NCBI GenBank assembly: GCA_022013695.1
Contig: JAKLPS010000024.1
Location: 1 to 64,000, forward strand
From: Weeksellaceae bacterium
GTDB lineage: Bacteria > Bacteroidota > Bacteroidia > Flavobacteriales > Weeksellaceae
Direction: 5' to 3'
DNA: 64,000 bases
In this document: one piece after another, positions 53,893 through 59,895 of the stretch
Layout: the number at the start of each line of letters is the position of its first letter
How positions within the stretch are numbered: the first letter of the stretch is position 1
Made by a program: the position numbers and the translations under genes
Notes under the pieces: model-generated
What the model was told of the DNA's origin: nothing
Seen by the model: the letters and a program-made list of their open reading frames with translations, nothing else
The model's database searches: none

Positions 53893-54162
53893 TTATTTTC
53901 TGATTCCCAATTCAGCGATGATCGCTCTATATCTGGAAATATCTTTCTGTTTCAAATAATCGAGAAGAGACTTTCTCTTTCCAACCAATTTTACCAATGA
54001 TCTCTCGGTTGCGAAATCGTGGCGATTGGCTTTCAAATGTTCCGAAAGGTGGTTGATTCTATAAGTGAATAGAGCCACTTGTCCTTCAGCGCTTCCTGTG
54101 TCGTTTGCAGATTTTCCGTGCTTTGCGAAAATTTCTGACTTTTTTTCTGGTGTTAGATACAT
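53893..54162 (-). CDS. rpsO: 30S ribosomal protein S15
   Basis: 89 aa; KHGKSANDTGSAEGQVALFTYRINHLSEHLKANRHDFATERSLVKLVGKRKSLLDYLKQKDISRYRAIIAELGIRK. Confidence 0.98.
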   Translation of the reverse strand: MYLTPEKKSEIFAKHGKSANDTGSAEGQVALFTYRINHLSEHLKANRHDFATERSLVKLVGKRKSLLDYLKQKDISRYRAIIAELGIRK

Positions 54163-54276
54163 TCCAATATTATTTAAATGATTATTATGTAATTCGGGTG
54201 CAAAGATAGGATTTTATTTGAGATTAGAAACGGTGTGTCAAACAATTTTTAGTAGAAATCACTTTTAAACCTATTT

Positions 54277-55599
54277 CTATTCCATCAAAAATTCTTTCAC
54301 CAACTCAAAATCCACAGCAAATTCCACCGATTGTTTCTCCTTTTTACTAAACGCTTCCAGCTTTTCCGGTATTTCGATTTTCTCCTTCAAGACATTTTCT
54401 ACTACTTCTACAAACTTTGCAGGATGAGCGGTTTCCAATAAAACCCCAATAAAATTTTTATCTAATAGGTCATTTTTGTCATCCGGAACACAGTCAAAGG
54501 ACTTCCTAAAAGTTTCCAGTCCCAAATAAGCAACCGCGCCGTGCGGATCCAAAGTATAACCGAAATCCTTTTTCACCTTTATCATCGCCTCTTTCGTTTC
54601 GTCATCCGAAAAAGAATAGGACTCAATCTCTTTTCTGAATTCTAAAACATCATCATTGAAAAGACTTTTCATTCTTTCAAAATTGCTTGGGTTTCCGACG
54701 TCCATTGCGTTGCTGATAGTTTGTTTTGATGGTTTTGCTTCGTAATTCCCGGTTTCTAAAAACTTTGGAACCACATCATTTGAGTTTGTCGAAGCGATGA
54801 ATTGATGAATTGGCAAGCCCATTTTCTTAGCAAAAAGTCCGGCTGTTAAGTTTCCAAAATTCCCGCTCGGAACTGAGAAAACAATCGGTTTTCCTAATTT
54901 TTGTAATTGAGCAAATGCCCAGAAATAATAAAATGACTGCGGAATTAACCTTGCGATATTGATGCTGTTCGCCGATGTCAAAGTGAATTTTTGATTCAGT
55001 TCTTCGTCGGACAAAATTTGTTTTGCTAAGGTCTGACAATCATCAAAAGTGCCATCGATTTCCAAAACTTTGATATTTCCGCCCCAAGTCGTGAGTTGTT
55101 TTTCTTGCAACGGACTCACTTTTCCTTTTGGATAAAGAATGTAAACCTCAATTCCAGGAACATTGAAAAACCCCGATGCCACCGCACTTCCCGTGTCGCC
55201 GGAAGTTGCAGCGATCACTTTCATTGGTTTTCCTTCGGAGAAATAAGCCATCATTCTCGCCATAAATCTCGCACCAACATCTTTGAAAGCCATCGTTGGA
55301 CCGTGAAATAGCTCCAAAGAATAGACATTCTCCGAAATTTTCACAGCCGGAATCTCGAAGTTCAAAACTTCATCGATGATTTCTTTTAAGTTGTCATCAG
55401 AAATGGATTCTCCGAGAAATTCTTTTGCTACCCGGAAACCGATTTCCTGCAAACTTAGATTGGGCAAAATTTCGAAAAAATCCGCTTCCAGTTGCGGAAT
55501 ATATTCTGGCATAAAAAGTCCACCGTCGTCGGCCAAACCTTTTAGAATGGCAGTTTTGATGTTGGTTTCTTCCTGTTTTCTTGTTGATATATATTTCAT
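54277..55599 (-). CDS. thrC: Threonine synthase
   Basis: MKYISTRKQEE, ELFHGPTMAFKDVGARFMARMMAYF, VIAATSGDTGSAVASGFFNVPGIEVYILYPKGKVSPLQEKQL. Confidence 0.97.
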   Translation of the reverse strand: MKYISTRKQEETNIKTAILKGLADDGGLFMPEYIPQLEADFFEILPNLSLQEIGFRVAKEFLGESISDDNLKEIIDEVLNFEIPAVKISENVYSLELFHGPTMAFKDVGARFMARMMAYFSEGKPMKVIAATSGDTGSAVASGFFNVPGIEVYILYPKGKVSPLQEKQLTTWGGNIKVLEIDGTFDDCQTLAKQILSDEELNQKFTLTSANSINIARLIPQSFYYFWAFAQLQKLGKPIVFSVPSGNFGNLTAGLFAKKMGLPIHQFIASTNSNDVVPKFLETGNYEAKPSKQTISNAMDVGNPSNFERMKSLFNDDVLEFRKEIESYSFSDDETKEAMIKVKKDFGYTLDPHGAVAYLGLETFRKSFDCVPDDKNDLLDKNFIGVLLETAHPAKFVEVVENVLKEKIEIPEKLEAFSKKEKQSVEFAVDFELVKEFLME

Positions 55600-55975
55600 T
55601 TTCTGAATGATGGATAATTGATAATTGATTAAAAATTAATGATTGCTTATGATTAACAAAAAAAATTAACGCAAAGTCCGCAAAGATTTTTTTTTAATCT
55701 TATTGAAAATATTTTTAAGGCTCGCAAAGGCGCTTAAGCTCAGCAAGAAATTAAATTTTAAGCTCTTTTGGGTTTAATAACAAAACTTGTTTTACGTCGA
55801 ATCTGCAGCCCGACTTATCTCATCTTTTTTATTTTATTTATTTGAATCGATGAACCACTTCGTTAGGTTTGAGTGGAAATCCTTTTTTGCTTCATACTTA
55901 ATTTCTTATTAAACGAAAATCTTGTGCAAAAAAGATTGGGAACGGAAAGCGGAAAAAGCTGCCCAAAAAATGATT

Positions 55976-56911
55976 TTAATTCATAACCCTCGCGCCTTCG
56001 CCATTGATTTTTGTAACAAAAGATTCGCTTTCTATATTTTTTTTGTTGAGTAATTCTTTGATTTTAAGGGAAATAGTTTGCGCAATTTCCTTTTTTTCAC
56101 ACAAAGCAAAAACCGACGGTCCTGAACCGGAAATTCCAAATCCAATTGCGCCGCTGTCCAAAGCGAGCTGTTTCATCTCGTAAAAATAGGGAATCAACAT
56201 CGCGCGAACCGGCTCTATAATGACATCTTCTAGACTTCGGCTGACTAAACCGAGATCGTTGGTGCAAAATCCGGCAACCAAGCCGGCGATATTTCCCCAT
56301 TGCTGAACGGCAGATTTCAGGCTGATTCTCTCCTTTATGATTTTCCGCGCCTCGCCCGTGGGAACGTCCACAAACGGATGGACGCAAACTACCGATAAAT
56401 CCTTTGGATAAGGCAGTTTGAGCGCATCCAACGGCTCATAACTTCGGACCAAAACCAATCCGCCCAACAGGGCTGGCGCCACATTATCGGCGTGGGCATT
56501 GCCGCAAGCAATGCGTTCTCCCTCCATTGCGAGCGGAAGCAATTCTTGTCGGGAAAATGGCGCTCCCATCAGCTCGTTGATGGCAACCAAAGCAGCAACA
56601 CTGCTTGCTGCACTAGAACCCATTCCGCTGTTGAGAGGCATTTTTTTGTAGAGTTCGATGTCAATTCCTTGATCTGCATTTATTTTTTTCAGAAATAAAT
56701 TGACGACGTGCGAAACTACATTTTTGTCCGGATCTTTTGGCAATTTTCCGCCGTCGCCTTCGATGTTGGTAATGGTTATTTGACCAGAATTATTTTTGCT
56801 TAAGATGATTTCGTCGCCCGGTTCATCGATGGCAAAACCGAGAATATCATAACCGCAAACCACGTTGGCGACGGTTGCCGGAGCGAAAACTTTTATTGTT
56901 TTTAAAGACAT
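55976..56911 (-). CDS. thrB: Homoserine kinase
   Basis: VFAPATVANVVCGYDILGFAI, KKMPLNSGMGSSAASSVAALVAIN, IGFGISGSGPSVFAL. Confidence 0.97.
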   Translation of the reverse strand: MSLKTIKVFAPATVANVVCGYDILGFAIDEPGDEIILSKNNSGQITITNIEGDGGKLPKDPDKNVVSHVVNLFLKKINADQGIDIELYKKMPLNSGMGSSAASSVAALVAINELMGAPFSRQELLPLAMEGERIACGNAHADNVAPALLGGLVLVRSYEPLDALKLPYPKDLSVVCVHPFVDVPTGEARKIIKERISLKSAVQQWGNIAGLVAGFCTNDLGLVSRSLEDVIIEPVRAMLIPYFYEMKQLALDSGAIGFGISGSGPSVFALCEKKEIAQTISLKIKELLNKKNIESESFVTKINGEGARVMN

Positions 56912-56979: not shown

Positions 56980-59424
56980 TTATTGAGCCGTAACTCGTAC
57001 CACATCTGCGAAAACGCCAGCTGCGGTAACTTCTGCTCCGGCGCCCGGACCTTTTACAACCAAAGGTGTGTTTCGGTATCGTGAAGTGGTGAACGAAATA
57101 ATATTATCGCTGCCCGAAAGGCTGAAAAAAGGATGGTTGGCATCAACCATTTTTACTTCGATGCTGATTTTTCCATCTTCCAGAATTCCGATGAGCCTGA
57201 GTTTTTTGCCAGAACTTTCTGCTTCATTTTTGAATGATAAAAAGTACGGTTCGTTCTTTTCCAGCTCTTCATAAAAACTTGGAATCGAATCTGCTTTTAG
57301 GCAAGCTTTCGGCAGAAAATCTTTGATGTTGACATCTAGCATTTCCAAAGGTAAGCCAATTTCTCTTCCCAGAATTAGCATCTTTCTGGAGAAATCCATT
57401 CCGTTCAGGTCATCCCTTGGATCGGGTTCTGTGAAGCCTAATTCTTGTGCTGTCATCACGACTTCTGCAAAAGTTTTTTCGCCCACATAATTATTAAAAA
57501 TATAGGAAATCGTTCCGGATAAAATGGCTTCTATTTTTAGGATTTCGTCTCCTGAAATCCAAAGGTCGTTGAGTGTTTTGATGATCGGAAGGCCTGCGCC
57601 CACATTGGTTTCGTACAAAAAACTAACGTTGTTTTTCTTCGCGAGTTTTTTGAATTGGCTGTACTGCTGGTAGCCGGAAGAATTCCCTTTTTTATTACAA
57701 GTTACGACTGAAATATTGTTATTAAACAACTGCGGATAAAGCTGCACTACCTCGTCGCTTGAGGTATTGTCCACGAAGACCAGATTGGGTAGATTTTTTT
57801 CAGAAACCAAACTTATAAACAATTCAAGATTAGCAGCTTGCAAGTTTTGATCTAATATTTGATTCAAATTAAAATTCAGACTTTCCTTTTCGGAAATGAT
57901 CATCTTGCGACTATTGATAACGCCAACCACATTGATTTTGATCTGATGATTTTTCTCAAGATTCTCTGCTTCTCTTTCCAACTGTCGGAATAAGGCTTTG
58001 CCGATATTTCCGGTTCCGGCAAACATCACATTGAAGGTTTTCACAGGTGAAAGCAAAAGTGAATCGTGAACCACATTCAAGGCTTTTGAAAGTTCATTTC
58101 GTTCAATTACGGCCGAAATATTAAGTTCCGATGAACCTTGCGCGATGGCGATGATATTGATGCCATTTTTGCCCAAAGCACTGAAAAATTGGCCGCTGAT
58201 GCCGCGCGTTTTTTTCATATTCTCGCCAACGACGGACAAAATACTGAGCTCGTTATCGATTTGTGGTTCATCGATTTTATTGGCGGTGATTTCAAAATAA
58301 AATTCTTCCTGGATGGCCTTCTCCGCTTTTTTCTCGTCATCCAAATTGACCACAAACGAGATGCTGTGTTCCGAACTGGCTTGTGTAATCAAGATTACAT
58401 TGACATTATATCTCCCCAACGCATTGAACAATCTGCCGCTGAAACCCTTCATCCCAATCATTCCGTTTCCGGTGATATTAATGAGACAAGTTTTCTCTAT
58501 GGAGACGATTCCTTTGATTAAACCTTTGGAAACTTCGGATTTTTGATGAATTAACGTGCCTTGATTTTCCGGATTGAAAGTATTCTTGATATAAATTGGA
58601 ATTTGGCTTTCGATTGCCGGGATCATTGTGGGCGGATAGATCACTTTGGCGCCAAAATAGGACATTTCCATCGCTTCCTGATAGCTGAGTTCGGGCTGGG
58701 AAAAAGCATTCTTGACCAAACGCGGGTCGGCGGTCATAAAACCATCGACGTCGGTCCAAATTTGGATTTCCTCGGCTTGCAAACCCGCTGCCAACACTGC
58801 GGCCGTGTAATCGGAGCCGCCTCTGCCAAGGGTTGTGGTGTCGTTATTTTTGTCTTGTGCGATGAAACCTGTGACGACATAAATTTGATTTTCCAAGTTC
58901 CAATTTCTTAGATTTTCATTGGTTTTAATAAAATCGACCGCTGCATTTCCGAAGTTGGAATCGGTGACAATCAGTTCTCTTGCATCTTGGTAATTCGCGG
59001 GGAAATCCTCCGATTGCAGATAAGTCGCAATGATTTTGGTCGACAATTGTTCGCCGTACGCCAGCAGTCTGTCTTTGATTCTACCCGACAATTCTCCGAG
59101 ATTTTTGATGCTGAAAAGAATATCTTCGACCTCGTTGAAACTCACTTTTACCATCATTAATGAAGGATTTTGCAAAGTTCTTGGAACTAATCCCGAGATG
59201 ATTTGGTAATGTTTGGCTTCTGCCTTTTTAAGAATCTCTGCAAATTCACTTTGCGCTAAAGCCGCTTCGGCAGCCGATAAAAGAGCATTTGTAACTCCGG
59301 AAAAGGCCGAACAAACCATAAGTAAAGGTTCTTTTTTACTGAATTCCTTTTCAACGATTAGTTTTACATTGTTTACAGCGTCCAAACTTCCGATGGAAGT
59401 TCCTCCAAATTTTAGTATTTTCAT
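56980..59424 (-). CDS. thrA: Bifunctional aspartate kinase/homoserine dehydrogenase I
   Basis: MKILKFGGTSIGSLDAVNNV, TLGRGGSDYTAAVLAAGLQAEEIQIWTDVDGFMTADPR, two ACT segments, MFAGTGNIGKALFRQL, ETNVGAGLPIIKTLNDL. Confidence 0.98.
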   Translation of the reverse strand: MKILKFGGTSIGSLDAVNNVKLIVEKEFSKKEPLLMVCSAFSGVTNALLSAAEAALAQSEFAEILKKAEAKHYQIISGLVPRTLQNPSLMMVKVSFNEVEDILFSIKNLGELSGRIKDRLLAYGEQLSTKIIATYLQSEDFPANYQDARELIVTDSNFGNAAVDFIKTNENLRNWNLENQIYVVTGFIAQDKNNDTTTLGRGGSDYTAAVLAAGLQAEEIQIWTDVDGFMTADPRLVKNAFSQPELSYQEAMEMSYFGAKVIYPPTMIPAIESQIPIYIKNTFNPENQGTLIHQKSEVSKGLIKGIVSIEKTCLINITGNGMIGMKGFSGRLFNALGRYNVNVILITQASSEHSISFVVNLDDEKKAEKAIQEEFYFEITANKIDEPQIDNELSILSVVGENMKKTRGISGQFFSALGKNGINIIAIAQGSSELNISAVIERNELSKALNVVHDSLLLSPVKTFNVMFAGTGNIGKALFRQLEREAENLEKNHQIKINVVGVINSRKMIISEKESLNFNLNQILDQNLQAANLELFISLVSEKNLPNLVFVDNTSSDEVVQLYPQLFNNNISVVTCNKKGNSSGYQQYSQFKKLAKKNNVSFLYETNVGAGLPIIKTLNDLWISGDEILKIEAILSGTISYIFNNYVGEKTFAEVVMTAQELGFTEPDPRDDLNGMDFSRKMLILGREIGLPLEMLDVNIKDFLPKACLKADSIPSFYEELEKNEPYFLSFKNEAESSGKKLRLIGILEDGKISIEVKMVDANHPFFSLSGSDNIISFTTSRYRNTPLVVKGPGAGAEVTAAGVFADVVRVTAQ

Positions 59425-59447: not shown

Positions 59448-59485
59448 AAAAAAAAGCCTTTCTGGAACATTCAGAAAGGCTTTTT
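59448..59485 (-). terminator. Attenuator (intrinsic terminator) between thr leader peptide and thrA
   Basis: Perfect 14-bp stem AAAAAGCCTTTCTG-7 nt-CAGAAAGGCTTTTT; on the minus strand followed by a T-run; 24 nt upstream of the thrA start. Confidence 0.92.
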
Positions 59486-59507
59486 GTATTGTTGCAATAT
59501 TTAATTT

Positions 59508-59579
59508 TCACATACACACCTTTCTGCGAACTGCGGCGGCAGTCGTAGTAGAAGCGGTTGTGGTGGTTGTAAAATTCAT
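59508..59579 (-). CDS. thr operon leader peptide MNFTTTTTASTTTAAAVRRKVCM (transcription attenuation)
   Basis: Not in the ORF track. ATG AAT TTT ACA ACC ACC ACA ACC GCT TCT ACT ACG ACT GCC GCC GCA GTT CGC AGA AAG GTG TGT ATG TGA; 8 Thr of 23 residues, followed by terminator then thrA. Confidence 0.9.
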   Translation of the reverse strand: MNFTTTTTASTTTAAAVRRKVCM

Positions 59580-59895
59580 TTCTTTGTTATAAATCTTTCA
59601 CGAAAATAAGAAAACATTTAAGACTGACCAATTCAAAACGCTTTTTTTCGATAATATTTCTAAAAATAGGCTAGTTATTAAGGCAAACGTTTCTTAAGTT
59701 ACCATTTAAAAAAAAATTTAACTCTGAAAATCAATACATTAACTATTTTATTTAAAAATATTTGGTACTTTGTATTGCACAATACCTTTTAGTTTATATA
59801 TCTTTGCAATGTAAAGTTAGAGAATGGTGTTTTTGATGGAAGATTTGAAAAAAACATTTGCGAAAACTTCGAAATTTGAACCAAACCAATTTAAT

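What the first reader, a model, noticed from the sequence alone, without database searches (positions are those of the whole stretch)
59448..59579. Threonine-operon attenuator with Thr-rich leader peptide, missed by the ORF track
Minus strand upstream of thrA encodes MNFTTTTTASTTTAAAVRRKVCM* (Thr runs of 5 and 3). It is followed by a perfect 14-bp terminator stem with a U-tract, then the thrA ATG. Leader RNA CAGAAAGG (59526-59519) is perfectly complementary to CCUUUCUG in the 5' arm of the terminator (59479-59472) and identical to the 3' arm. Antiterminator and terminator are therefore mutually exclusive. The antiterminator strand lies about 15 nt past the last Thr codon and would be covered by a ribosome at the leader stop codon. 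This is classical ribosome-stalling attenuation, best known from proteobacterial thr operons, here in a Bacteroidota genome. The leader has no Ile codon, suggesting a threonine-only response.
Basis: partly seen in the sequence, partly recalled or inferred. Interest (0 to 1): 0.82.

Follow-up and report, generated by a model that had tools for sequence, protein, structure and literature searches.

The report
Threonine-sensing switch before thrABC operon
A tiny threonine-rich decoy gene and an RNA hairpin in front of the threonine-making genes form a classical starvation switch, here in a Bacteroidota bacterium, and its codons change with the bacterium's metabolism: relatives that make isoleucine also carry isoleucine codons, while those that lost the isoleucine pathway, like this one, do not.

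Summary
The minus strand carries MNFTTTTTASTTTAAAVRRKVCM* (59579-59508), an 8-nt arm (59526-59519), a 14-bp U-tract terminator (59485-59448) and thrA (59424). It is the only Thr-rich short ORF in the window; 60 shuffles gave none. All 23 genus leaders read carry 8-10 Thr codons with fixed geometry. In six other lineages arm and terminator are rewritten but still pair. In all 15 leaders tested, a ribosome at the stop would cover the arm and one on most Thr codons would leave it free. Best explanation: classical ribosome-stalling attenuation. Nothing here is experimental.

Two additions. (1) ilvA, ilvC and ilvD are missing from this genome and six congeners. The six of these seven that keep thrA all lack Ile codons after residue 4, while 16 of 17 ilv+ leaders have them (p=7e-5, not tree-corrected; at least two independent losses). 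So the Thr-only reading holds here, but most relatives have Thr+Ile leaders. (2) A terminator-less thrA leader sits on another ThrA clade across Bacteroidota; mechanism open.

Verdict: new thr member of a known kind; Bacteroid-trp (RF01692) is the phylum precedent.

The parts
59601..59631 (-). putative Bacteroidota-type promoter: TTGG (59631-59628), 19-nt spacer, TATTTTCG (59608-59601, near TAnnTTTG)
   Evidence: sequence; equivalent TTTGC...TA(C/T)TTTCG blocks lie in front of the leader ATG in the relatives; the promoter consensus is from memory; inferred
59508..59579 (-). leader peptide ORF MNFTTTTTASTTTAAAVRRKVCM* with 8 Thr codons; contains region 1 (about 59572-59565)
   Evidence: conserved in 23 leaders of the genus
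59519..59526 (-). region 2, antiterminator strand CAGAAAGG, overlapping leader codons R-R-K-V
59472..59485 (-). region 3, 5' arm of the terminator, which pairs either with region 2 or with region 4
59448..59464 (-). region 4 (59464-59451), 3' arm of the intrinsic terminator, and U-tract
56980..59424 (-). thrA, fused aspartokinase-homoserine dehydrogenase, first structural gene
   Evidence: Pfam AA_kinase, ACT, NAD_binding_3, Homoserine_dh
55976..56911 (-). thrB, homoserine kinase (GHMP kinase)
   Evidence: Pfam GHMP_kinases_N and _C; the name homoserine kinase is inferred from its place between thrA and thrC
54277..55599 (-). thrC, threonine synthase; 376 nt downstream of thrB
   Evidence: Pfam Thr_synth_N and PALP; TIGR00260

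Best explanation
This is a classical ribosome-mediated transcription attenuator of thrABC. RNA polymerase starts just upstream and a ribosome follows it through the 23-codon leader. If charged tRNA-Thr is short, the ribosome stalls in the ACN run (59570-59541), region 2 (CAGAAAGG) stays free, pairs with region 3 (CCUUUCUG), and the terminator cannot form, so thrABC is transcribed. If threonine is plentiful, the ribosome reaches the UGA and covers region 2, regions 3 and 4 form the 14-bp terminator, and transcription stops near 59448. Without translation, a weak helix between the first Thr codons and GGU/UGUGA would also leave the terminator free to form. In this species the signal is threonine alone, because the Ile codons of its relatives are gone along with ilvA, ilvC and ilvD. 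Shown here: the sequence elements, their conservation, covariation between lineages, geometry, and the ilv correlation. Inferred: the promoter, stalling, termination and the direction of the response.
For: Exact elements and rarity by chance. All 23 leaders read in the genus keep 8-10 Thr codons. In 19 measured leaders the arm-to-stop distance is always 8 nt and arm-to-terminator start 43-48 nt, while terminator-to-thrA spacing ranges from about 46 to 290 nt with repeats inserted, as expected of a terminator rather than a translational block. Arm and terminator co-change in seven lineages, for example CAGAAAGG/CCTTTCTG, TAGAGAGG/CCTCTCTA, GAGGGAGG/CCTTCCTC, TTAGAAGA/TCTTCTAA: 61 of 63 positions pair, equalled by 2 of 5040 permutations (arms chosen by eye). 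An unbiased duplex search recovers the same pairing with p of about 0.003-0.05 per locus in most loci. In all 15 leaders tested a ribosome at the stop covers 6-9 of 9 nt of the arm while a ribosome on most Thr codons leaves it free. RNAalifold finds the terminator and a 1:2 helix. Leader Ile codons follow the presence of ilv genes.
Against: There is no expression, Term-seq or reporter data. Within the genus the terminator 5' arm is invariant, so compensatory change is seen only between genera. In some distant loci the antiterminator pairing is weak or not better than chance by the duplex test (L085 p=0.09, L121 p=0.08, L122 p=0.22). One close relative of the gene, L065 (G172), has lost the leader, so it is not indispensable. 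Tight ribosome-polymerase coupling in Bacteroidota is assumed, not shown here.
Confidence: 0.91

Rival explanations
1. The terminator simply ends an upstream or leader-only transcript (a small-protein gene or sRNA), and thrA has its own promoter after it; the Thr-rich peptide is incidental.
For: The hairpin is also a good stand-alone terminator. In a few relatives repeats lie between terminator and thrA, leaving room for a second promoter.
Against: It does not explain the 8-10 Thr codons, the fixed arm-stop-terminator spacing, the covarying arm in seven lineages or the Ile-codon correlation. In the window only about 24 nt separate the U-tract from the thrA ATG.
Confidence: 0.04
2. The leader controls translation of thrA (hairpin or reinitiation) rather than transcription termination.
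For: Leader ORFs can act by reinitiation, and Bacteroidetes are included in the survey that proposes it (PMC4833913).
Against: The hairpin does not include the thrA start, is followed by a T-run, and lies from about 46 to 290 nt from thrA in relatives.
Confidence: 0.03
3. The leader is a metabolite-binding riboswitch or a protein-bound RNA, and the ORF is fortuitous.
For: It is a structured leader in front of a biosynthetic operon.
Against: No Rfam riboswitch or T-box matches at gathering score; the conserved part is the Thr codon run in frame with a stop at fixed distance; nucleotide and peptide sequence differ between lineages while Thr/Ile content persists.
Confidence: 0.01

Closest known systems
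Proteobacterial threonine operon leader, Rfam Thr_leader RF00506 (E. coli thrL-thrABC)
   Same: Thr-codon leader peptide, mutually exclusive antiterminator and U-tract terminator, upstream of thrA(BC); the sub-threshold hit covers 59581-59448 over the whole model (24.4 bits).
   Different: Far below the gathering score (55 bits), unrelated sequence, another phylum, Bacteroidota-type promoter. The E. coli leader also has Ile codons (from memory; PMC7041290 mentions isoleucine codons with the thr operon); this one has none.
Bacteroid-trp, Rfam RF01692 (Bacteroidete tryptophan peptide leader)
   Same: Same phylum, same logic: an example in a genome of the same order (L160) has leader ORF MNNTWWWKNLRQTS followed by a U-tract terminator.
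   Different: Senses tryptophan; different sequence and structure; our region scores 23.6 bits against a gathering score of 49.
Type A thrA leaders of Pedobacter antarcticus (L023), Weeksellaceae TAE3-ERU29 (L034), Splendidivirga (L022) and genera g21, g23 and family f41
   Same: Same architecture with lineage-specific covarying arms; most lie on the same ThrA clade as the window.
   Different: Shorter Thr runs mixed with 2-7 Ile codons; different peptides and terminator sequences.

Membership tests
Classical ribosome-mediated (leader-peptide) transcription attenuator | Short translatable ORF rich in codons for the operon's end product | tested here: met
   8 of 23 codons Thr; 0 such ORFs in 60 shuffles; 8-10 Thr in 23 leaders of the genus
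Classical ribosome-mediated (leader-peptide) transcription attenuator | Intrinsic terminator between the ORF and the first structural gene | tested here: met
Classical ribosome-mediated (leader-peptide) transcription attenuator | Antiterminator mutually exclusive with the terminator, conserved by covariation | tested here: met
   (between lineages); within the genus one-sided changes only
Classical ribosome-mediated (leader-peptide) transcription attenuator | Stall position frees, and stop position masks, the antiterminator strand | tested here: met
   with an assumed footprint of 18 nt upstream and 12 nt downstream of the A-site codon start
Classical ribosome-mediated (leader-peptide) transcription attenuator | Operon encodes synthesis of the sensed amino acid | tested here: met
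   thrA, thrB, thrC by Pfam; thrC by TIGR00260
Classical ribosome-mediated (leader-peptide) transcription attenuator | Read-through depends on the amino acid in vivo | not testable with these tools
   needs Term-seq, RNA-seq or a reporter
Rfam Thr_leader RF00506 | Score at or above the gathering threshold of 55 bits | tested here: not met
   24.4 bits, E=0.02 in a 471-base scan; no hit at gathering
Rfam Bacteroid-trp RF01692 | Score at or above 49 bits, with Trp codons | tested here: not met
   23.6 bits; no Trp codon in the leader

The most novel reading that the evidence does not exclude
Bacteroidota use two mechanistically different threonine leaders, each tied to its own ThrA lineage. Type A, in the window, is classical attenuation. 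Type B (Flavobacteriaceae, families f33, f13 and f16, genus g20 and others) has a Thr/Ile or Thr/Met leader whose stop codon or last codons lie in a small GC hairpin, in Flavobacteriales followed by UUUUCACAUAU, with no U-tract terminator, and would sense the stalled ribosome by an undescribed route, perhaps by the ribosome directly blocking a pause or NusG/Rho-dependent termination hairpin. In both types the leader's codons would be edited by evolution when a branch pathway such as isoleucine synthesis is lost.
Probability: 0.4. Interest if true: 0.7.

Novelty: new member of a known kind. Interest (0 to 1): 0.52.

Why it matters
It extends amino-acid attenuation of the thr operon, textbook in enterobacteria, to a phylum where control of amino-acid synthesis is poorly documented, with enough comparative evidence to guide a direct test. 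The tie between loss of isoleucine genes and loss of Ile codons is a natural experiment suggesting that a leader's codons report what the operon's product is used for, and it gives a way to predict the signal from sequence alone. The terminator-less sister design (type B), which has no Rfam match at gathering in the examples scanned, is a candidate new mechanism. I could not read the one comparative survey most likely to list Bacteroidota attenuators (Lopatovskaya et al. 2010, Mol Biol 44:128, cited in PMC4833913), so priority for type A is uncertain.

Tried and rejected
Rfam: the best sub-threshold hit to the region was an Enterococcus sRNA, RefA9 (34 bits, gathering 49), driven by the terminator hairpin and rejected. 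Type B leaders and distant type A loci gave no Rfam match at gathering. MAFFT alignment across genera misplaced the arms, so inter-genus pairing was counted on hand-chosen segments with an unbiased duplex search as a check. Within-genus RNAalifold gave no compensatory pairs because the terminator arm is invariant. A pattern for the type B hairpin plus CACATAT found no copy in the window's genome and one, at thrA, in 60 family genomes, so it is not a general element. RF01692 was found in 1 of 60 class genomes and not in the window's own. Paper searches found no report of a Bacteroidota thr attenuator. A first script for counting covariation failed on a pattern and was redone.

Full report
What is there. 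The minus strand holds, in order, a promoter-like pair (TTGG, TATTTTCG), a 23-codon leader ORF MNFTTTTTASTTTAAAVRRKVCM*, a short spacer, a 14-bp hairpin with a T-run, and thrA about 24 nt further on. thrB and thrC follow; Pfam confirms aspartokinase-homoserine dehydrogenase, a GHMP kinase and threonine synthase. The terminator folds at -18.0 kcal/mol, the competing leader helix at -15.4 kcal/mol, so the antiterminator can form first and hold if the ribosome is out of the way. The leader is the only ORF of its kind among 511 short ORFs in the window; 60 shuffled windows gave none, and the complementary 8-mer appears in 4 of 20000 shuffled leaders.

Conservation within the genus. 47 loci were fetched with ThrA and 200 family genomes searched. 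The genus of the window (named members: Epilithonimonas and some Chryseobacterium records) carries the same device in all 23 leaders that could be read: 8-10 Thr codons, C-terminus RKVC(M/L) or a near variant, terminator arm GCCTTTCTG. In 19 of them the arm ends exactly 8 nt before the stop, starts 43-48 nt before the terminator arm and lies 8-14 nt after the last Thr codon, whereas the distance from terminator to thrA varies widely because repeats have been inserted. This separates a transcription terminator from a translational element. Within the genus the arm changes only in ways that keep pairing in all but one cell, mostly A-U to G-U (99.3% of cells paired against 29-66% when slid). RNAalifold adds a helix between the first Thr codons and the region before the stop, the usual protector helix.

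Conservation between lineages. Other families carry the same architecture with different letters: L034 TAGAGAGG/CCTCTCTA, Pedobacter L023 GAGGGAGG/CCTTCCTC, Splendidivirga L022 GGGAATGG/CCGTTCCC, genus g23 L076 CAGAAGGG/CCTTTCTG, genus g21 L086 TTAGAAGA/TCTTCTAA, family f41 L123 GGAGGAAG/CTTCCTCC. Over seven lineages 61 of 63 positions pair, reached by 2 of 5040 re-dealings. The segments were picked by eye, so this is an upper estimate; the unbiased duplex search recovers them in most loci but not convincingly in L085, L121 and L122. With an assumed ribosome footprint, all 15 leaders examined free the arm when the ribosome sits on most Thr codons and mask 6-9 of its 9 nt at the stop.

Thr alone or Thr plus Ile. 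Most relatives do have them, typically TTTTTISTTTTI(N/S/R)S. I therefore asked which genomes can make isoleucine. ilvD, ilvC and the strong ilvA hit are missing from the same 7 of 24 genomes of the genus, including the window's (99.94% complete); thrC is kept in all but one of them, G079, which also has no full thrA match. All six ilv-minus genomes with thrA lack Ile after residue 4 of the leader (two keep one Ile at residue 4, ahead of the Thr run), while 16 of 17 ilv-plus leaders have it (Fisher p=7e-5; counting any Ile, p=0.002). The cut at residue 4 was chosen after seeing the data. The exception is a 73% complete MAG, G156. The ThrA tree requires at least two separate origins of the ilv-minus state, so the p value overstates independence but the pattern has repeated. 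In the other leader design one further pair agrees: ilvD-minus G178 ends VTTTTTTTTPFLG, its ilvD-plus congener G164 ends SIIITITITTPFLG. Against generality, a few ilv-plus g20 leaders also lack Ile in the last 14 codons (G186, G195, G183). The simplest reading is that Ile codons serve a purpose only while threonine is drawn on for isoleucine.

A second design. Many Bacteroidota thrA genes have another leader (type B): about 19-37 codons, ending in Thr/Ile, or with Thr and Met in f16 and f33 loci, so that the last codons and stop lie in a GC hairpin (ACCCC-nnnn-GGGGU, or rewritten as ACGGG-GUAA-CCCGU in f16), with UUUUCACAUAU after it in Flavobacteriales and no terminator found near thrA in nearly all of them. 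The ThrA tree divides by leader type: 17 type A rows (with 3 leaderless) in one clade (100/100), 14 type B rows in another (100/97), with Splendidivirga (A) and f16 (B) unplaced. The window's family holds both, so operon and leader seem to have moved or been retained together. Genus g16 has type A-like ThrA and no leader.

Status of knowledge. Rfam's proteobacterial Thr_leader and Bacteroid-trp score 24.4 and 23.6 bits here, well below their gathering scores. Bacteroid-trp in a genome of the same order is a Trp-leader attenuator of the same logic, so the mechanism is not new to the phylum. I found no paper on a Bacteroidota thr attenuator in the library, but the most relevant survey is not held. 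Taxonomic names for the anonymous handles are inferred from matching contig lengths or left as codes.

Judgement. The device is a well-supported new member of a known kind. What lifts it is the evolutionary test with the isoleucine genes and the terminator-less sister design that the search exposed.

Noticed in passing
L089, L090, L092-L095, L097, L098, L100, L107-L111, L126, L128, L133, L135, L136, L142-L147, L152-L159, L026-L042: Type B thrA leader: Thr/Ile or Thr/Met leader ORF whose stop lies in a small GC hairpin, no U-tract terminator near thrA, UUUUCACAUAU downstream in Flavobacteriales; a second hairpin inside the ORF with some compensatory pairs in the window's family; no Rfam match at gathering in the ten examples scanned.
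   Followed up: partly
G000 whole genome: The window's genome and six congeners lack ilvA (strong hit), ilvC and ilvD, predicting branched-chain amino acid auxotrophy in about a quarter of the genus.
   Followed up: yes
L065 (G172, genus g26), upstream of thrA: A thrA 84% identical to the window's sits in another genus without the leader, behind a transposase-like reading frame and a short stretch also seen upstream of E. hungarica thrA: likely horizontal transfer that left the attenuator behind.
   Followed up: partly
L009, L012, L016, L017, L039, L066 between terminator and thrA: Repeated palindromic AGCTCCGTAGGAGCG-like elements inserted between terminator and thrA in several Epilithonimonas genomes.
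   Followed up: no
L120 (G233, family f36): Leader MIARAFRITGRIGMTTIMSIMGDVQSWR mixing Met, Ile and Thr codons before a GGCCTTCCTC hairpin and a GTG-start thrA: a possible Thr/Ile/Met-responsive version.
   Followed up: no
window 54160-54208: S15-Flavobacteria ribosomal protein leader (RF03161, 62 bits) on the minus strand, downstream of thrC and just before the 89-aa ORF 54162-53893.
   Followed up: no
window 55600-55975: Long 376-nt gap between thrB and thrC without a plausible ORF or leader; thrC may have its own promoter.
   Followed up: no
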